Source of the DNA: Clostridiales bacterium
GTDB taxonomy: Bacteria > Bacillota > Clostridia > Christensenellales > CAG-138
NCBI GenBank assembly: GCA_012511925.1
Contig: JAAZFD010000040.1
Coordinates: 1-20,520 of the forward strand
Length of the DNA: 20,520 bases
Reading direction: 5' to 3'
A program made the translations under genes and the position numbers. Below are positions 2,271 to 19,308 of the stretch, piece by piece (within the stretch, counting starts at the first letter, position 1; each line of letters opens with the position of its first letter). Under the pieces are notes generated by a model that saw only the letters and a list, made by a program, of their open reading frames with translations, was not told where the DNA came from and ran no database searches.

Positions 2271-2311
2271 TAAAAATACGCCCTTGCAACCCACAACGGG
2301 ACGCAAAGGCG
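2271..2311 (-). terminator. T-box regulated intrinsic terminator before ileS
   Basis: On the minus strand CGCCTTTGC (2311-2303) pairs with GCAAGGGCG (2287-2279), with one G-U pair, and is followed by TATTTTTATTT. The 5' arm abuts the T-box core, so terminator and antiterminator are mutually exclusive, as in other T-box leaders. Confidence 0.88.
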
Positions 2312-2520
2312 CGCGATACCACCCGAATTGAAGAATAGTATGTAATTTACTCTTCCACTCAAAACCCATAACGCAGGAATGCGGCAAAGGCTACTAAAAA
2401 TGATTCGCCCATGCACTCACGGAGGATACCAAAGGGTTTGCTCATACTGTCTTGCACCGTACACAGCTCGCTAAATGGCGAAATAACTTTTGGCTTGTTC
2501 CGCTCAACGCTTTAATATTC
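2271..2520 (-). promoter_or_regulatory. Isoleucine T-box riboswitch leader of ileS
   Basis: Transcribed leader between the ileS promoter and its start codon. Read on the minus strand it holds the T-box core GGGTGGTATCGCGC (2324-2311), which base-pairs with the free CCA end of uncharged tRNA in the antiterminator. Upstream is a Stem I-like segment with AGCGAGCTG, then GAGCAAACCCTTTGGTATC (about 2442-2424), then CGTGAGTGC. The ATC in this specifier-loop context is an isoleucine codon and matches the downstream gene. A terminator hairpin follows the T-box core. The expected logic is readthrough into ileS when tRNA-Ile is uncharged. The 5' boundary is inferred from the promoter position. Confidence 0.93.
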
Positions 2521-3954: not shown

Positions 3955-4668
3955 ATGACATTGGAAGTAGCTAATAAATTAACCGAGCTTAGAAAACAAG
4001 CAGGGCTTTCGCAAGAGGAAGTTGCTACAAAATTAGGTGTTAGTCGCCAGGCTGTATCAAAGTGGGAAAACGGAGAGGCATCACCCGATACGGAAAACCT
4101 CGTTGCCCTTTCGCATCTATACAAAACAACGGTTGATGAAATTCTTTGTATAGCGCGTGAAACGGAAGCCGAGAAGAAAAAACGCAGGGTAAAGGTTGAT
4201 TTACCTTTTATTCATGTTGATATTGATGATAATGACGATGACGACAAAGAGCGTGTAAAGGTCGATTTGCCCTTTATACATGTCGACACAACAGATGGCG
4301 ATGAAACAACTATAGAGTTAGAGGGCGAGCCGGATGAGAATGGAGTTTATAAAAAGGTTAATATAAAGCGCAAGTCAAAGTGGCTAAGCTTTCCTTTTCC
4401 TGCACTTGTAACGGCTGTTTATCTATTTGTAGGCTTTCAATTTCATTTGTGGCACCCGGGTTGGATACTGTTTTTGTCTATTCCGCTATATTACTGGATA
4501 GCTTCTTGTATTGATAAAAAGCGACTCGGTTCTTTCCCTGTCGCAATAGTGATAGCATTGGCTTACCTATACTTTGGCTTTTTCCATGGTTGGTGGCATC
4601 CTGCGTGGATTTTGTTTATCCTTATTCCCGTATTCGATTTCTTCTTTAAACCAAAAAAAGGTGATTAA
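3955..4668 (+). CDS. XRE-family regulator with C-terminal membrane domain
   Basis: 237 residues. Residues 1-66 form a Cro/C1-type helix-turn-helix (LTELRKQAGLSQEEVATKLG, then VSRQAVSKWENGEASPD). A charged linker holds two copies of VKVDLPFIHVD (79-89 and 101-111), separated by an acidic run IDDNDDDDKER. The C-terminus has two hydrophobic units (about 149-185 and 194-230), each with an FHxWHPxWILF-like motif (HLWHPGWILFL and HGWWHPAWILF), so it also looks duplicated. This suggests a DNA-binding protein tethered to the membrane. The start is supported by AAGGGAG upstream. It is monocistronic. The target genes and the signal are unknown; I do not recognise a named homologue. Confidence 0.8.
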   Translation: MTLEVANKLTELRKQAGLSQEEVATKLGVSRQAVSKWENGEASPDTENLVALSHLYKTTVDEILCIARETEAEKKKRRVKVDLPFIHVDIDDNDDDDKERVKVDLPFIHVDTTDGDETTIELEGEPDENGVYKKVNIKRKSKWLSFPFPALVTAVYLFVGFQFHLWHPGWILFLSIPLYYWIASCIDKKRLGSFPVAIVIALAYLYFGFFHGWWHPAWILFILIPVFDFFFKPKKGD

Positions 4669-5484: not shown

Positions 5485-6255
5485 ATGTCAAAAATAATAG
5501 CAATCGCCAACCAAAAGGGCGGCGTTGGAAAAACCACAACTGCTGTTAACCTCTCGTCCTGCTTAGCAGAATTGGGAGTGCGTGTGCTTGCTGTGGATAT
5601 TGACCCCCAAGGCAACATGACAAGCGGTTTAGGCGTTAAAGACAAAACAAGTGAAAGCATCTACGATGTAATTATCAACGGCGCATCAGCAAGAGATGTA
5701 ATAGTAGGCACAGCCGTAGAAAATCTCGACATTATTCCTTCGGAAATAAACCTTTCCGGAGCAGAGGTAGAACTCGTAAACGTTATGGCAAGAGAGCAGG
5801 TATTAAAACGCGCCTTATCTGAAATCAAAAACGAGTACGACTACATAACTATCGATTGCCCTCCCTCATTAGGACTGCTAACCCTCAATGCACTTACTGC
5901 CGCAGCTACCTTATTAGTGCCGATTCAATGCGAATACTACGCTTTGGAAGGACTTGTTCAGCTTATGAACACCGTATCGTTGGTTCGCAAGCATCTAAAT
6001 CCTGCAATAGCCGTAGAAGGTGTTGTTATGACCATGTACGATGTAAGAACAAATCTCTCTGCGCAAGTTGTAAACGAAGTAAAAAAGCTATTCAAAAACA
6101 AGGTTTACGAAACCATTATCCCGCGCTCGGTAAAATTAGGCGAAGCGCCCAGCTTCGGTTTACCTATAAATCTCTACGACCCCAAATGTGCAGGCGCAAA
6201 GGCTTATACGGATTTAGCCAAAGAATTGATTGAAAAGGACGGTAACAACAAATGA
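5485..6255 (+). CDS. soj: ParA-family segregation ATPase (Soj)
   Basis: 256-residue ParA ATPase, full length for chromosomal Soj. It has the deviant Walker A KGGVGKTT (11-18), the segment VDIDPQGNMTSGLG (37-50), and Walker B ITIDCPPSLG (121-130). It binds DNA non-specifically as an ATP dimer and works with ParB-parS to separate origins; in Bacillus it also acts on DnaA. The stop TGA overlaps the next gene's ATG (ATGA at 6252), so the pair is co-translated. This overlap also shows that TGA is a stop in this organism. Confidence 0.97.
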   Translation: MSKIIAIANQKGGVGKTTTAVNLSSCLAELGVRVLAVDIDPQGNMTSGLGVKDKTSESIYDVIINGASARDVIVGTAVENLDIIPSEINLSGAEVELVNVMAREQVLKRALSEIKNEYDYITIDCPPSLGLLTLNALTAAATLLVPIQCEYYALEGLVQLMNTVSLVRKHLNPAIAVEGVVMTMYDVRTNLSAQVVNEVKKLFKNKVYETIIPRSVKLGEAPSFGLPINLYDPKCAGAKAYTDLAKELIEKDGNNK

Positions 6256-7121
6256 CACAGCAAAAAAAGCAAGTGCTTGGCAGAGGATTAGACGCCCTAT
6301 TTTCCGACTATGAAACCCCACAAAACAATTCAGGAGGAGTTATTGAGGTTGATATAAGACTTATCGACAACAACCCCGCACAGCCACGCCAAGAATTTGA
6401 CGAGCAAAAGCTATTTGAGCTTTCCGAATCAATAAAAAGACATGGCATTGTGCAACCCATAATAGTAACAGCAAATAAAGACCGCTACACCATAGTTGCA
6501 GGCGAAAGACGTTTTCGTGCCGCAAGGCTTGCAGGACTATCTACAATCCCCGTAATAGTTAAGGCTTTTGCGGACGAGCAGCTATTCGAAATCGCTTTAA
6601 TCGAAAACATTCAGCGTGAAAACCTAAACCCGATTGAAGAAGCAAAGGCAATCCGCTTTTTAATCCAACAGCACGATATAACGCAAGACGAAGCCGCACA
6701 AAGACTGGGCAAAAGTCGCTCCGCTATCGCAAACTCGGTTCGTTTGCTAAACCTATCCGAATCTATTCAGAGAATGGTACGCTCTGGTGAACTCCAAACA
6801 GGACACGCAAAGGTGCTACTTGGCATAAAAGACGAAAAGAAGCGTGAAAACCTCGCTCATTCGGTTACTTCACAGGGTTGGTCGGTTCGTCAGCTTGAAA
6901 ACGAAATAAATTCAGATGAAAGAAAAGCCGTCATCTCAAAAACCCGAAAAAAACAACAGGCAGACCCGGCCATAAAATCGATTGTCGAAAAAATGCAGCA
7001 GATATTAGCAACAAAGGTTGAGCTAATTGGCGATATGGACAAGGGAAAGTTAGTTATCGAATACTACTCTCAAGCCGAATTGGAGTCGCTATACAACTTT
7101 ATTTGTACTATCGAGCCATAA
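6252..7121 (+). CDS. spo0J: ParB/Spo0J chromosome partitioning protein
   Basis: 289 residues. It opens with GRGLDALFSDY, the ParA-contacting N-terminus. The CTP-binding fold has box II GERRFRAARLAG (84-95) and box III ENIQRENLNPIEEA (118-131). The helix-turn-helix is ITQDEAAQRLGKSRSAIANSVRLL (about 143-166), followed by a C-terminal dimerisation region. It loads as a CTP-dependent clamp at parS and recruits SMC to origins. Three candidate parS sites lie within 2.5 kb upstream. The box II GERRFR form fits ParB rather than requiring a Noc assignment, and the position beside soj supports this. Confidence 0.96.
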   Translation: MTQQKKQVLGRGLDALFSDYETPQNNSGGVIEVDIRLIDNNPAQPRQEFDEQKLFELSESIKRHGIVQPIIVTANKDRYTIVAGERRFRAARLAGLSTIPVIVKAFADEQLFEIALIENIQRENLNPIEEAKAIRFLIQQHDITQDEAAQRLGKSRSAIANSVRLLNLSESIQRMVRSGELQTGHAKVLLGIKDEKKRENLAHSVTSQGWSVRQLENEINSDERKAVISKTRKKQQADPAIKSIVEKMQQILATKVELIGDMDKGKLVIEYYSQAELESLYNFICTIEP

Positions 7122-7230: not shown

Positions 7231-8165
7231 ATGGCAATCGTAACAAGTACCGAGATGTTCAAAAAGGCTTATGAGGGCAACTATGCAATAGGCGCTTTTA
7301 ACGTCAACAACATGGAGATTATCCAAGGCATCACAGAGGCTGCAAAAGAGGAAAACGCACCCCTAATTCTTCAAGTATCAGCAGGCGCACGCAAGTATGC
7401 AAACCATACATATCTTATGAAGCTAATAGAAGCAGCAGTTATTGAAACCAACCTGCCTATTTGCGTACACCTTGACCATGGCGATTCATTCGAGCTTTGC
7501 AAAAGCTGTATTGACGGAGGCTTTACCTCTGTTATGATTGACGGCTCACACCTCCATTCGAAGAAAATATCGCACTAACACGCAAGGTTGTAGAATATGC
7601 ACATGCTCATGGCGTAGTTGTAGAGGGCGAGCTTGGCAGATTAGAGGGTGTGGAAGACGATATCAAGGTAAATTCAAAAGACGCAAGCTACACCGACCCC
7701 AACGATGTTGAAGAGTTCGTAAAAAACACAAATGTTGATTCCTTGGCAATCGCAATCGGCACAAGCCATGGCGCATACAAGTTCAAGCCAGGCACAAAAC
7801 CACAGCTTCGTTTCGACATTTTAGAGGAAATCCAAAGGCGCCTACCACAATTTCCTATCGTGCTGCACGGTTCAAGCTCTGTCGTTCCCGAATTTGTAAA
7901 GATGATAAACGACAATGGCGGAAATATGCCTGATGCAATCGGCGTTCCCGAAGATATGCTTAGAAAAGCAGCCGCAATGTCTGTATGCAAAATCAATATC
8001 GATAGCGATTTGCGTTTAGCAATGACAGGAACTATTAGGCAGTACATGGCACAAAACCCCTCACATTTCGACCCACGCCAGTACCTAAAGCCCGCGCGTG
8101 CCGCCATCAAAGAGATGGTTCGCCATAAGCTGGTTAATGTATTGGGTTGCAACGGAAAGGCATAA
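7231..8165 (+). pseudogene. fba: Class II fructose-1,6-bisphosphate aldolase, split by a one-base frameshift
   Basis: Glycolytic and gluconeogenic aldolase interconverting fructose-1,6-bisphosphate with DHAP and glyceraldehyde-3-phosphate. The first frame carries NVNNMEIIQGITEAA and the zinc-site motif VHLDHGDS, then breaks at codon 109 into HSKKISH and a stop at 7576. Reading from 7554 in the next frame restores PFEENIALTRKVVEYAHAHG, then VEGELGRLEG, AIGTSHGAYKF (metal ligand His), VLHGSSSV and NIDSD, ending in TAA at 8163-8165. One missing C in the CTCC at 7552-7555 explains it (CTC-CCA-TTC expected). With that base the protein is about 311 residues, normal for the family. Promoter, ribosome-binding site and terminator are all good, so this may be a sequence error in a live gene rather than decay. 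Confidence 0.93.
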
Positions 8166-13344: not shown

Positions 13345-13405
13345 GCCCAACCGTCCCCCTTGGGCAACGCCCCAACAAAATCCACGAAACCGTTCGCCGC
13401 TCTTA

Positions 13406-13513
13406 ATACGCCGCAGGCGTATTTCACATTTTTTCGAAGAAAAAATATTTCACCCGTTCGAAGAACGGATTTCACCGCCGAAGGCGATTTCATTGGGAGC
13501 GAAGCTCCATAAA
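13406..13513. repeat. String of five short hairpins joined by ATTTCA linkers
   Basis: Consecutive stems: ATACGCC-GCA-GGCGTAT (13406-13422), ATTTTTT-CGAAG-AAAAAAT (13428-13446), CCGTT-CGAAG-AACGG (13454-13468), CGCC-GAA-GGCG (13476-13486) and GGAGC-GAA-GCTCC (13496-13508). Each is followed by a linker of the type ATTTCAC or ATTTCAT (ATAAAT after the last). All loops except the first contain GAA. It ends 98 bp before ecfA1, in the upstream region of the ECF operon. Confidence 0.82.
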
Positions 13514-13610: not shown

Positions 13611-14462
13611 ATGGGAATAATTGAGGTAAACTCGATAAGCTACGAATACAATGCAGCGAAAGATATTTCGATTGCGCCTGCACTAAAGGATGTGTCCCTC
13701 TCTATCGAGCAGGGCGAATTCCTGTGCATTGTAGGTCATAACGGTTCGGGCAAAAGCACATTAGCAAAGCATCTTAACGGACTTTTACAACCCACAAGCG
13801 GCAATGTACTTGTTAAGGGAATGGATACCAAGGACGAGCAAAGGTCATTGGAGATTAAAAAAACTGTGGGAATCTGCTTTCAAAACCCCGACAACCAAAT
13901 CGTAACAACGATTGTTGAAGACGATGTTGCGTTCGCTCCCGAAAATCTTGGAATCGAGCCAAAGGAAATTCGCCTGCGTGTTAACATGGCGCTGAAAGCC
14001 GTTGGCATGGAAAGCTACGCAACATCCGCTCCACATATGCTTTCGGGCGGTCAAAAACAACGAATAGCCATAGCAGGACTATTAGCTATGCAACCCGAAG
14101 TGCTGGTATTAGACGAAGCAACCTCAATGTTAGACCCGGCAGGGAAAGCGGAGGTATTGTCAATCGTTCAAAGGCTAAATAGCGAGGGAATCACAATCGT
14201 AATGATAACTCAATACATGGAGGAAGCGACCATTGCCGACAGAGTAATTGTAATGGCAGACGGCGAGATTGCGTTGCAGGGAACTCCCAAACAGGTGTTC
14301 TCGCAGGCTGCGGCATTGCGTGGGTTAAGATTGGATGTTCCTGCTGTTGTTGATTTGCGAAACAGGCTTATCGCCAAGGGTATGCGCCCAACTCATGCTT
14401 TGAATGCAAAAGACTTTGCAAACTTCATTGCGGAAGCTCTGGGGGTAACAAATGGCGATTGA
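13611..14462 (+). CDS. ecfA1: ECF transporter ATPase EcfA1
   Basis: 283-residue ABC ATPase of the energy-coupling factor module that powers vitamin or metal uptake through interchangeable S-components. Walker A GHNGSGKST (42-50), Q-loop CFQNPDNQIV (Gln91), signature LSGGQKQR (144-151), Walker B VLVLDEA (164-170). The H-loop position reads ITQYMEEA, with Gln201 where most ABC ATPases have His. Start ATG 13611 has AAGGAAA upstream. Its end overlaps ecfA2 by 11 bp. A possible promoter (TTGTTA 13520-13525, TAAACT 13543-13548, 17-bp spacer) is weak. Confidence 0.95.
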   Translation: MGIIEVNSISYEYNAAKDISIAPALKDVSLSIEQGEFLCIVGHNGSGKSTLAKHLNGLLQPTSGNVLVKGMDTKDEQRSLEIKKTVGICFQNPDNQIVTTIVEDDVAFAPENLGIEPKEIRLRVNMALKAVGMESYATSAPHMLSGGQKQRIAIAGLLAMQPEVLVLDEATSMLDPAGKAEVLSIVQRLNSEGITIVMITQYMEEATIADRVIVMADGEIALQGTPKQVFSQAAALRGLRLDVPAVVDLRNRLIAKGMRPTHALNAKDFANFIAEALGVTNGD

Positions 14463-15303
14463 ACTAAAAAACGTATGCCATACATATATGGAAGGTACGG
14501 CGTTCGAGCATGGCGCACTTGAAAACATAAACCTTACGATTCATGAGAACGAGTTCGTGGGAATCATAGGTCATACGGGCTCGGGAAAAAGCACATTGGC
14601 AACTCACATGAACGGCATTATTCAACCTAACAGCGGCAAGGTTTTCGTTGACGGAATAGACATGAGCGATAAACGCAAGCGCAAGGAAGGCAGAGCCAAG
14701 GTAGGCATGGTTTTTCAATATCCCGAGCATCAGCTGTTCGAAGAAACGGTTGAGAAAGACATTGCATTCGGTGTAAAAAATATGGGACTAAGCGAAGCAG
14801 ATGTTGACGAGCGAGTGCGTGAAGCGTTTTATTTGGTTGGGCTTGAATACGAAAAGTTTGCAGAGAAATCCCCTTTTGAGCTGTCCGGCGGCGAAAAACG
14901 CAGAGCGGCATTAGCAGGAATAATTGCTATGCGTCCAAAATATTTGGTGCTTGACGAACCCATGGCAGGACTTGACCCGTCGGGCAGAAAAGAAATCATG
15001 CAAACCATTATGAAGCTAAAAGATGCTTTGGGTTGTGCCGTTATTATGATTTCACATTCTATGGACGATGTGTTGAAAGCATCAAGTAGAATCATTGTAA
15101 TGAATAAGGGCAAAATAGTAATGGACGATACACCGAGGGAAATATTTTTACATTCTGAAAAATTGCTTGAAATAAACTTGGGTTTACCGCAAGGCTTGGT
15201 GTTGGCAAATGAGCTAAGAAGCAGAGGAATCGACATTCCCAAAGATGCTTTTTTGATGGACGAGCTGTTCGAAATACTGTGTGAGAGGTTGGGACTATGC
15301 TGA
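14452..15303 (+). CDS. ecfA2: ECF transporter ATPase EcfA2
   Basis: 283 residues, partner of EcfA1 in the heterodimeric ATPase. Walker A GHTGSGKST (40-48), Q-loop VFQYPEHQLFEETV (Gln89), signature LSGGEKRR (144-151), Walker B YLVLDEP (164-170), and a normal H-loop ISHSMDDV (His202). PEHQLFEETV is typical of EcfA2. The gene overlaps ecfA1 and is separated from ecfT by a 100-bp gap carrying Noc-site-like palindromes. Confidence 0.95.
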   Translation: MAIELKNVCHTYMEGTAFEHGALENINLTIHENEFVGIIGHTGSGKSTLATHMNGIIQPNSGKVFVDGIDMSDKRKRKEGRAKVGMVFQYPEHQLFEETVEKDIAFGVKNMGLSEADVDERVREAFYLVGLEYEKFAEKSPFELSGGEKRRAALAGIIAMRPKYLVLDEPMAGLDPSGRKEIMQTIMKLKDALGCAVIMISHSMDDVLKASSRIIVMNKGKIVMDDTPREIFLHSEKLLEINLGLPQGLVLANELRSRGIDIPKDAFLMDELFEILCERLGLC

Positions 15304-15313
15304 AAAATAATCA

Positions 15314-15331
15314 ATATTTCCCGGGAAATAT
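15314..15331. promoter_or_regulatory. Noc-binding-site-like palindrome (NBS) 1
   Basis: ATATTTCCCGGGAAATAT is a perfect 18-bp palindrome whose core, ATTTCCCGGGAAAT (15316-15329), equals the published Bacillus subtilis Noc-binding consensus. Noc is a ParB paralogue that binds such sites, spreads, and keeps division away from the nucleoid. No noc gene is in the window, so the reader protein is inferred. Confidence 0.7.
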
Positions 15332-15380
15332 TTCTGAAACGGGAAATCTTTTGTTGAATAATCAGTATTTCTCGGGAAAT
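15330..15380. promoter_or_regulatory. Degenerate and near-perfect NBS-like palindromes 2 and 3
   Basis: ATTTCTCGGGAAAT (15367-15380) differs from the Noc consensus at one base. Between it and site 1, ATTTC-TGAAAC-GGGAAAT (15330-15347) has both half-sites but 4 extra bases in the middle. The flanks are also repeated (AATAATCAATATTTC and AATAATCAGTATTTC), so the cluster arose by local duplication. Confidence 0.6.
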
Positions 15381-15403
15381 AACTCGAAAAAGAGGTGGGG
15401 AAT

Positions 15404-16194
15404 ATGTTAAAAGACATAACCTTGGGTAGGTACTTCCCCGGGGATTCGGTAGTGCATAGGTTAGACCCACGCACGAAAATTCTCCTAACTATTGCATACA
15501 TGATAATTATTTTCGTGGTAGATGAGCTTTGGCTTTTCGCTCCCATTGCCGCATTCATGTACTTGGCAGTGTTGGCGGCGCAAATTCCTATTCGCTATAT
15601 TCTGCACTCGTTGCGCCCCTTGCGTTGGATATTGCTACTCATGTTCGTGCTGAATATTTTCATGGTTAAAGAGGGCAAGCCTTTAGTTGATTGGTGGATT
15701 ATCTACATTACCGACGAAGCAATTTTACGGGCACTGTTCATAATCGCAAGACTTGTTTTGCTGATTGCAGGCACCTCGCTTATGACATTAACCACTACCC
15801 CTATTGCGTTGACCGATGCAATAGAGTCTTTAATGAAGCCGCTAAAACTCGTAAAATTTCCTGTACACGAGCTTGCAATGATGATGACGATAGCACTAAG
15901 ATTCATACCCACATTGCTTGACGAAACCGACAGAATTATGAAAGCACAATTAGCAAGAGGCGCAGACTTTGAAACTGGTGGACTAATTAAACGAGCAAAA
16001 TCTATGATTCCCATACTTATTCCGTTGTTCATTTCTGCGTTCAAAAGGGCTGATGAATTGGCATACGCTATGGACTCACGCTGCTATCATGGCGGCATAG
16101 GCAGAACAAGAATGAAAGTTATGAAGTATTCAAGCATAGACATTTACGCCGCTTTAACTATGGTAATTTTCTGTGCAGGAATACTATTGATTAG

Positions 16195-16198
<4 letters not shown>
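15404..16198 (+). CDS. ecfT: ECF transporter transmembrane protein EcfT
   Basis: 264-residue membrane subunit linking the EcfA1A2 ATPases to S-components. It opens with GRYFPGDSVVHRLDPRTKI, typical of EcfT, has about 5-6 membrane helices, and carries the two coupling motifs AQLARGADFETGG and AYAMDSRCYHGGIGRTR in the C-terminal half. I chose ATG 15404, with AGAGGTGG 5 nt upstream; a GTG at 15395 in frame overlaps that ribosome-binding site. The stop TGA overlaps the start of the next gene. No S-component gene is in the window, consistent with a shared (group II) ECF module. truA, the common next gene in Firmicutes, is not here. Confidence 0.94.
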
Positions 16199-18573: not shown

Positions 18574-19308
18574 ACAACCCTTAGGAATCCCATAGATAAA
18601 TGCAAAGCGAGTTTTGTTGCTTGGGCTATTTTATAAATAATCTTGTTTTTGTTACTTTTTTCAAAAAAGTAAACGTTCCATACGTTCCTTCGTGTCCTCG
18701 TTCTTGGGGCTTTGCCCCCAACCCCCCCCACTACTTTTGCTAAAAGGCAAGGGCTTTGCCCTTGCACCCCACCTAAGGGTACAACCCTTAGGAATCCCAT
18801 AGATAAATGCAAAGCGAGTTTTGTTGCTTGGGCATTTTATAAATAATCTTGTTTTTGTTACTTTTTTCAAAAAAGTAAACGTTCCATACGTTCCTTCGTG
18901 TCTTCGTTCTTGAGGCTTTGCCCCCAATCCCCCACTACTTTTTGCTAGATGGCAAGGGGCTTTGCCCCTGCGCCCCACCTAAGAGTATAACCCTTAGGAA
19001 TCCCATAGATAAATGCAAAGCGAGTTTTGTTGCTTGGGCTATTTTATAAATAATCTTGTTTTTGTTACTTTTTTCAAAAAAGTAAACGTTCCTCTTGTAT
19101 CTCTCGTCCTCTTCGTTCTTGGGGCTTTGCCCCCAACGCCCCCACTACTTTTGCTAAAAGGCAAGAGGCTTTGCCCCTGCACCCCACCTAAGGGTATAAC
19201 CCATAGGAATCCCATAGATAAATGCAAAGCGAGTTTTGTTGCTTGGGCTATATTATAAATAATCTTGTTTTTGTTACTTTTTTCAAAAAAGTAAACGTTC
19301 CATACGTT
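18574..19308 (+). repeat. ~207-bp tandem repeat array of nested palindromes, 3.5 copies
   Basis: Units begin at 18574, 18781, 18987 and 19196 (206-209 bp); the last is cut after GTAAACGTTCCATACGTT. Each full unit carries several inverted repeats. Across each junction CCTAAGGGT pairs with ACCCTTAGG. TACTTTTTTCAAAAAAGTA is palindromic. GGGGC-TTT-GCCCC and GCAAGGGC-TTT-GCCCTTGC follow. Reading frames through it are products of the repeat. It fills most of the gene-free 18573-19555 stretch; the rest holds a CCCCTACA hairpin (19444-19469) and a heptamer tract. Confidence 0.92.

What the first reader, a model, noticed from the sequence alone, without database searches (positions are those of the whole stretch)
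15297..15403. Noc-binding-site (NBS) cluster between ecfA2 and ecfT
The gap holds ATTTCCCGGGAAAT, the known B. subtilis Noc-binding consensus, extended to an 18-bp perfect palindrome. A second copy has one mismatch and a third is degenerate, within 66 bp. The sites interrupt an otherwise overlapping operon and appear locally duplicated. If read by a Noc-like ParB paralogue, this marks a nucleoid-occlusion locus inside a transporter operon, in a lineage where Noc may not be documented.
Basis: partly seen in the sequence, partly recalled or inferred. Interest (0 to 1): 0.72.

Follow-up and report, generated by a model that had tools for sequence, protein, structure and literature searches.

The report
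Noc-loading sites in a transporter operon
Between two genes of an ECF-type transporter operon, an uncultured Clostridia bacterium carries one exact and one near-exact copy of the DNA word that the division-blocking protein Noc binds in Bacillus; the word is kept at the same spot in its sister species, which has a Noc-type gene, so this is likely a place where Noc would load and tie the chromosome to the membrane.

Summary
An exact 16-bp consensus Noc-binding site (NBS) inside a 20-bp palindrome (15313-15332), and a one-mismatch copy 51 bp on, lie in a 100-nt gap between ecfA2 and ecfT; the 'third copy' is only a half-site. The genome has 4 exact copies (0.013 expected); all 4 sit at matching places in a sister species although near-flank identity is 53-73%. 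The window's ParB has Spo0J-type residues (RSNG), but the sister encodes a Noc (QKKR); this MAG's noc locus falls in an assembly gap. Over 61 related genomes exact NBSs go with Noc (18 of 35 Noc+, 2 of 25 Noc-; this MAG set aside). Origin enrichment is only weakly supported. New here: in other genera an NBS or near-copy sits inside ecfT, in its Y-F-P-G-N codons, in two groups of Clostridia. The window's gap is likely a duplicated ecfT start that carried the site upstream as a 37-codon spacer ORF, while ecfT's own codons drifted. Against: Noc-bearing Clostridia elsewhere lack the ecfT site, another ecfT motif shows equal codon conservation, no binding data exist, and no noc was found in this MAG. 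Verdict: a known kind of element at an unexpectedly persistent, partly protein-coding address.

The parts
15313..15332 (.). NBS copy 1: 20-bp perfect palindrome holding the exact 16-bp NBS consensus (15315-15330)
   Evidence: conserved in sister genome G001 (L064)
15366..15381 (.). NBS copy 2: one mismatch (C to T) to the 16-bp consensus; perfect in G001 at the same 51-bp spacing
15340..15347 (+). half-site CGGGAAAT, not conserved in G001; probably incidental
15297..15410 (+). predicted spacer ORF of 37 codons (MLKNNQYFPGNISETGNLLLNNQYFSGNNSKKRWGIC*): ATG overlaps the ecfA2 stop (ATGCTGA), stop overlaps the ecfT start (ATGTTAA)
   Evidence: open in the same register in G001 (TTG start there)
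15283..15309 (+). likely duplicated start context (ribosome-binding-site-like stretch, ATG, next codons), 20 of 27 identical to the ecfT start context 15390-15416
   Evidence: 0 of 2012 other ATG contexts in the pooled own-genome sequence reach 20 (maximum 17)
14452..15303 (+). ecfA2, energy-coupling factor ATPase
   Evidence: TIGR04521, 369 bits, over its cut-off of 330
15404..16198 (+). ecfT, transmembrane component; codons 15431-15445 (YFPGD, TACTTCCCCGGGGAT) are where other genera carry an NBS, here 4 mismatches away
   Evidence: (best model CbiQ TIGR02454, 88 bits, E 7e-25, under its cobalt-specific cut-off of 111.8)
13611..14462 (+). ecfA1, energy-coupling factor ATPase
   Evidence: TIGR04520, 362 bits, over its cut-off of 315
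6252..7121 (+). parB/spo0J: specificity residues R-S-N-G, that is parS-type, not Noc
5485..6255 (+). parA/soj-like ATPase beside parB
   Evidence: ParA-type models match, none of the rows shown over its cut-off

Best explanation
The 100-nt gap between ecfA2 and ecfT carries one exact and one near-exact Noc-binding site, conserved in place in the sister species, and is likely a loading point for the nucleoid-occlusion protein Noc. Shown by sequence: the site pair, its conservation, the four-site set of the genome, a Noc with NBS-type residues in the genus, and co-occurrence of Noc and NBS in relatives. Inferred from established work on B. subtilis Noc: a Noc dimer binds the palindrome, takes up CTP, closes into a clamp, slides onto flanking DNA and through an N-terminal helix ties this stretch of chromosome to the membrane, where it hinders Z-ring assembly. 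Also inferred: the site pair arose by duplication of the start of ecfT, which in other genera bears an NBS in its Y-F-P-G-N codons. The duplicate stayed open as a 37-codon spacer ORF, likely keeping ecfA2-to-ecfT translational coupling while freeing ecfT's codons to drift.
For: Exact 16-bp consensus (consensus as stated in PMC7383237). 4 exact sites in the genome, 0.013 expected, 0 in the reversed control. 4 of 4 sites at orthologous places in G001 with 14/14 identity, while near flanks are 53-73% identical, gaps counted. Sites lie in unrelated settings (ecf gap, an hflX-like gene, a class A PBP gene, 0.4 kb upstream of a spoIIA-like operon), unlike a regulon. G001 Noc has QKKR, against RSNG in the window's ParB; P0002, 82% identical, also QKKR. 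The noc flank in G000 is contig C136, which ends 201 bp past the last aligned base, about 1.2 kb short of noc; the uvrC side was not found. Exact NBS in 18 of 35 Noc+ and 2 of 25 Noc- genomes (G000 set aside), Fisher p 0.0006; 249 hits against 19 control hits at up to 2 mismatches over 61 genomes. G014 and G034, one genus, whose Noc lost Q173 (P, A), have 0 NBS. ecfT-embedded site: of 20 YFPGN-encoding ecfT genes, 9 exact and 7 with one mismatch; the NBS codons stand above their direct neighbours in synonymous conservation. Duplication: start contexts 20/27 identical, above all 2012 other ATG contexts.
Against: No noc found in this MAG (one PF02195 hit; TIGR04285 counted a second match in G000 that was too weak to be listed and was not seen). 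No binding data. 17 of 35 Noc+ genomes have no exact NBS, and G020 and G052 have exact NBSs without a Noc found. Within the family alone the link is weaker (counts within 2 mismatches, 29 Noc+ against 7 Noc-, p 0.017). NBS numbers are low (5 and 8 within 2 mismatches in the two genomes of this genus) beside about 70 in B. subtilis (PMC4331003). The ecfT site is not class-wide: 0 of 14 genes for the same peptide in a class sample had it (0-1 mismatch), though at least 7 of those 14 genomes carry a QK(K/R)R Noc. Codon convergence about as strong as at YFPGN was also seen at L-D-P-R-T(-K) in the same gene: YFPGN ranks third of 43 five-codon runs, after DPRTK and level with LDPRT; LDPRT passes the same kind of test; its R codon also stands out. 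An open spacer frame arises in 6.5% of shuffles. Translation of the spacer is untested.
Confidence: 0.84

Rival explanations
1. Operator of a transcription factor that controls ecfT; the palindrome resembles the NBS by chance.
For: A palindrome in an operon gap is a usual operator layout; one promoter-like match lies in the gap (at the chance level of 0.9 expected).
Against: The same exact word is conserved inside coding genes (hflX-like, a PBP) and 0.4 kb upstream of spoIIA-like genes, recurs in other genera in cca-, methyltransferase- and sigma-factor-like genes, and its presence goes with Noc.
Confidence: 0.06
2. An RNA element: the two palindromes pair into a hairpin of about 20 bp in the mRNA and tune ecfA2 against ecfT.
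For: Predicted fold -32.6 kcal/mol, z -3.0, 2 of 200 shuffles as stable; the arms 15315-15330 and 15366-15381 are 94% complementary.
Against: Any two copies of a palindrome pair with each other; the other three conserved sites are single copies, as are the ecfT-embedded sites in the stretches printed. No Rfam family in the gap.
Confidence: 0.05
3. A parS-like site for the window's own ParB.
For: parB lies about 8 kb away; Noc and ParB are paralogues with related sites.
Against: The ParB residues are RSNG, not QKKR; a near-perfect parS (one mismatch to TGTTTCACGTGAAACA) is at G000 contig C165:886.
Confidence: 0.03
4. Relic or coding by-product: the words are left over from duplicated ecfT codons and are not bound by anything now.
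For: The copies encode YFPGN and YFSGN, like the EcfT start peptide; copy 2 has one mismatch here.
Against: Both copies are perfect in G001 with the 51-bp spacing kept while ecfT's own codons are 3 (G001) and 4 (G000) mismatches away; the three other sites are conserved as well.
Confidence: 0.1

Closest known systems
Noc-binding sites (NBS) of Bacillus subtilis and Staphylococcus aureus
   Same: Identical 16-bp consensus; scattered over genes of unrelated function; a QKKR-type Noc in the genus; in several relatives a site on the contig that holds parB.
   Different: Few sites (4 exact and 5 within 2 mismatches here; 6 and 8 in G001) against about 70 (B. subtilis, PMC4331003) and 41 (S. aureus, PMC5540599); here a tandem pair inside an operon, conserved between species; in related genera the site is written into ecfT codons.
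Noc (TIGR04285), ParB/Noc CTPase family
   Same: The G001 Noc aligns best with the solved Noc structures (7nfu, 7ng0, 7ol9; also 6y93) and carries Q, K, K, R at the specificity positions.
   Different: 314 bits, one below the curated cut-off of 315; noc lies near uvrC-, divIC- and spoVT-like genes (names by my reading) and on another contig than parB; the N-terminal start MPVFDFFK differs in sequence from that of B. subtilis Noc (recalled).
parS sites of Spo0J/ParB
   Same: Related palindrome read by a paralogue; a parS-like site exists in this genome.
   Different: The centre is CCCGGG, not CACGTG, and position 1 is A, not G (PMC7383237).

Membership tests
Noc-binding site (NBS) | 16-bp palindrome TATTTCCC-GGGAAATA | tested here: met
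   Exact at 15315-15330; one mismatch at 15366-15381
Noc-binding site (NBS) | A Noc protein in the same lineage | tested here: met
   G001, same genus; P0002. Not found in the MAG itself, contig break
Noc-binding site (NBS) | Several sites over the chromosome, in unrelated genes | tested here: met
   4 exact sites, all conserved in G001
Noc-binding site (NBS) | Enriched near the origin, absent at the terminus | tested here: inconclusive
   6 of 55 exact sites (20 genomes) on parB contigs against 1.7 expected, p 0.007; without this genome 5 against 1.67, p 0.025; origin and terminus could not be placed on draft contigs
Noc-binding site (NBS) | Bound by Noc in vivo or in vitro | not testable with these tools
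   Needs gel shift or ChIP
Noc (G001 protein) | Specificity residues Q173 K179 K184 R201 (ParB numbering) | tested here: met
   QKKR
Noc (G001 protein) | Curated TIGR04285 cut-off of 315 bits | tested here: inconclusive
   314 bits, just under; the listed matches I read as Spo0J in these 61 genomes score up to about 248
Noc (G001 protein) | N-terminal membrane-targeting amphipathic helix | not tested
   The N-terminus MEEKMPVFDFFKQSK was seen but not modelled
Noc (is the window's ParB one?) | QKKR residues | tested here: not met
   RSNG; TIGR04285 233 bits against the 315 cut-off
parS | TGTTTCAC-GTGAAACA | tested here: not met
   The gap word differs at positions 1 and 6 of each half; parS-like site elsewhere

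The most novel reading that the evidence does not exclude
The start of ecfT is an old, protein-coding Noc-loading address shared by two groups of Clostridia: the conserved EcfT peptide Y-F-P-G-N is spelled so that the DNA is also a Noc-binding site. In the window's genus the two readings were uncoupled by duplication: a spacer ORF made of ecfT-start copies now carries two Noc sites in tandem and keeps the operon translationally coupled, while ecfT's own codons drifted. A DNA-positioning signal and a transporter gene thus evolved out of shared letters, perhaps because Noc's membrane tethering pairs well with membrane insertion of the nascent transporter.
Probability: 0.33. Interest if true: 0.72.

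Novelty: new variant of a known kind. Interest (0 to 1): 0.52.

Why it matters
It extends Noc/NBS chromosome organisation, worked out in Bacillus and Staphylococcus, to uncultured Clostridia, by protein residues as well as by site. It also offers a rare case in which a binding site of a chromosome-positioning protein is written into a conserved protein motif and can be followed as it moves out by duplication. If ChIP confirms it, ecfT gives one persistent NBS address against which the turnover of other NBS positions can be measured.

Tried and rejected

ParB of the window as the reader of the site: rejected on residues.

Degenerate third copy: not above chance, not conserved.

Class-wide conservation of the ecfT-embedded NBS: tested and not met. 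14 of 391 class genomes encode the exact peptide pattern GQYFPGNS; none within one mismatch. In an order sample 16 of 396 have the pattern: 7 of 7 in the window's family are within one mismatch (1 exact), 2 of 9 in other families (0 exact).

Codon tests. In 8 family genomes YFPGN has 7 mismatches in all to the NBS against 24.6 expected, 0 of 50,000 draws; but the convergence control was as strong at LDPRT (0 of 5,000) and fair at RCYHG (p 0.009), not at HELAM, RADEL or TTTPI. In one search DPRTK outranks YFPGN. So codon conservation alone is not decisive.

Most NBS positions compared are not shared between genera. 39 further exact sites (34 of the 57 found in the 61 relatives' genomes plus 5 from genomes of named loci) were compared all-against-all and with 5 genus sites (ecf, hflX, PBP, spoIIA, glyS) and 3 ecfT sites. 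Recurring positions: ecf, a CCA-adding-enzyme-like gene (3 genera), a methyltransferase-like gene (2), a sigma-factor-like gene (2) and an intergenic site of G012 and G009 with the same neighbours (gene names by my reading of the peptides, not by a family search).

Promoter, terminator and RNA-family scans of the gap: nothing above chance.

Rows dropped: L114 and L110 are the same genomes as G035 and G009 (identical match coordinates). L177 (YFPGN, 4 mismatches) fell out of the 20-gene set by my regular expression; with it the count is 9 exact of 21. YFPGD genes were left out of that set. G046 was left out of the contig test because no Spo0J was listed for it. One search found no EcfT motif in 12 loci and misread G017 and G060. 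My first regular expression for Noc missed 19 of 35 proteins; one search replaced it.

Full report
Observation. The ecfA2 stop is at 15301-15303 and the ecfT start at 15404. The 100-nt gap holds the exact 16-bp NBS consensus at 15315-15330 within a 20-bp palindrome, and a one-mismatch copy at 15366-15381. The consensus is the one stated in PMC7383237 (passages read). Four exact 14-mers occur in the 1.66-Mb MAG (360 contigs, 86.6% complete), with one one-mismatch copy (the neighbour) and two two-mismatch matches; the reversed control gives 2 at that looser level and 0 for exact copies. The Markov expectation for exact copies, trained on the window, is 0.013.

Conservation. G001, the only other genome of the genus among the relatives searched, has six exact sites. 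I fetched the G001 stretches around those sites and blasted the four G000 contigs against them: each G000 site falls on a G001 site. Near-flank identity, gaps counted, is 61% (PBP gene), 73% (hflX-like gene), 53% (upstream of the STAS-domain, spoIIA-like operon) and 68% (ecf, where the second copy counts as flank); the 14 letters are intact in all four. In G001 both ecf copies are perfect, 51 bp apart. Gene names.

The reader protein. The window's ParB aligns best with Spo0J structures and has R-S-N-G at the four specificity positions. In PMC7383237 Q173 and R201, with a lysine at 179 or 184, read the NBS. G001 has a second ParB-like protein that aligns best with solved Noc structures and has Q-K-K-R. 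No such protein was found in the MAG. Its contig C136 (4674 bp) aligns with the G001 noc neighbourhood to base 4473 and ends 201 bp later, about 1.2 kb before noc; the uvrC flank was not found either. TIGR04285 counted two matches in G000, of which only the Spo0J was listed. A protein 82% identical to the G001 Noc, QKKR, is in the databases from a Clostridiales MAG; the window's ParB and the G001 ParB stretch compared are 78% identical, so P0002 may come from the window's species or one near it (inference).

Co-occurrence. Taking TIGR04285 matches of at least 260 bits as Noc (a gap lies between 248 and 260 in these genomes; residues checked), 35 of 61 genomes are Noc+; 18 of these have an exact NBS, against 2 of 25 Noc- (G000 set aside), Fisher p 0.0006. 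Hits within 2 mismatches of the 16-mer total 249 against 19 for the reversed control. Restricted to the family the difference is weaker (29 against 7 genomes, p 0.017), and G020 has 17 hits with no Noc found. Q173 is kept in 33 of the 35 and R201 in all; G014 (P) and G034 (A) lost Q173 and both have zero NBS. This is natural covariation in the direction expected from the structure work, but the two are one genus and other Noc+ genomes (for example G023, G028, G058) also have none.

Origin. parB contigs hold 6 of 55 exact sites in 20 genomes against 1.72 expected (p 0.007); without the window's genome, 5 against 1.67 (p 0.025) (contig lengths from the region fetches; test). B. subtilis and S. 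aureus sites are origin-enriched and missing near the terminus (PMC5540599, PMC4331003, passages). The trend agrees; it is not a proof.

The gap as an ORF. From ATG 15297 the gap reads MLKNNQYFPGNISETGNLLLNNQYFSGNNSKKRWGIC* and ends at 15410. It overlaps the ecfA2 stop by ATGCTGA and the ecfT start by ATGTTAA. G001 is open in the same register (from a TTG) with YFPGN twice. The start contexts of spacer and ecfT share 20 of 27 bases; none of 2012 other ATG contexts in the pooled own-genome sequence exceeds 17. The peptides match the EcfT start MLKDITLGxYFPGx, with three codons missing. I infer duplication of the ecfT start. An open frame alone is weak evidence (6.5% of shuffles), and translation is untested.

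The ecfT address. In other genera the NBS lies in ecfT itself. Among 20 ecfT genes chosen by the peptide YFPGN alone (8 of the family, 12 from the 80 named loci after dropping one duplicate; L177 missed by the expression), 9 have the exact 14-mer and 7 have one mismatch. Named cases with the exact word include Candidatus Soleaferrea massiliensis (L118) and Pseudoflavonifractor phocaeensis (L146). Synonymous conservation relative to pooled codon usage is 1.78, 1.46, 1.74, 1.27 and 1.78 at the five codons and 0.75-1.24 at the assessed columns directly around them (3-9 and 15-19); the D, P and R of LDPRT, a little further on, reach 1.19, 1.28 and 1.53. N, Y and P rank 4 to 6 of 111 columns, F 13th, G outside the first 15. 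Of the 8 named loci with the exact word, 7 lie in genomes with a QK(K/R)R Noc; in the eighth (L159, a 1.2-Mb assembly) no match of any kind was found. In two of these genomes (L138, L146) only one exact NBS was found, and its coordinates agree with ecfT. Against a wider claim: 0 of 14 class-sample genes come within one mismatch, although at least 7 of those genomes carry a QK(K/R)R Noc. So the address is lineage-bound, not universal. In the window's genus ecfT itself is 3-4 mismatches away while the spacer holds the word.

How it likely works (inferred). Following PMC8429893 and PMC4331003 (passages read): Noc nucleates on the palindromes, loads as a CTP clamp, spreads over neighbouring DNA (8-10 kb in S. 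aureus, PMC5540599) and ties DNA to the membrane, hindering division there. Two tandem sites would be expected to raise loading. I see no sequence evidence that ecfT expression is the point, though clamp spreading over a membrane-protein operon could matter.

Novelty. No paper in the held library was found that links Noc-binding sites to ecfT: one search gave 20 papers with two of three terms, 15 seen as a listing, where the 'ecft' hits read as FtsZ papers. The NBS word itself is in 3 held papers. Searches for Noc with Clostridia or Clostridioides difficile found none, with Clostridium and Spo0J two (listings only). Wu et al. 2009, which maps the B. subtilis sites, was not read. The element is a known kind; the conserved coding address and its duplication into a spacer ORF are the variant.

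Noticed in passing
window 7231-8165: The class II aldolase-like gene (name by my reading) is split in two frames (ORFs 7231-7578 and 7650-8165): frame break or assembly error.
   Followed up: no
window 2294-2516 (-): T-box leader (RF00230, 100 bits) just upstream of ileS.
   Followed up: no
window 13397-13477 (-): Gut-1 RNA (RF01706, 58 bits) just upstream of ecfA1, on the other strand.
   Followed up: no
window 18576-19308: Four tandem copies of a unit of about 207 bp, the compared 111-nt core 70-98% like its reference, downstream of the NAD-dependent DNA-ligase-like gene (name by my reading).
   Followed up: no
L271, L279, L303 (G021, G031, G026): Exact NBS in a CCA-adding-enzyme-like gene in three genera, in the other coding frame (I-S-R-E-I); likewise a methyltransferase-like gene in G013 and G022, a sigma-factor-like gene in G451 and G453, and an intergenic site with shared neighbours in G012 and G009.
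   Followed up: partly
G014, G034: Noc-like proteins that lost Q173 (to P and A), in genomes with no NBS: possible natural change or loss of Noc specificity.
   Followed up: partly
G020: 17 NBS hits within 2 mismatches but no Noc found in a 96% complete genome.
   Followed up: no
G010:C20:12811-13718: An exact NBS about 125 bp from the noc match itself.
   Followed up: no
L072:3061-4599 and L066: A conserved NBS about 0.4 kb upstream of an operon that reads like spoIIAA-spoIIAB-sigF: this uncultured genus may be able to sporulate (STAS domain; the rest by my reading).
   Followed up: no
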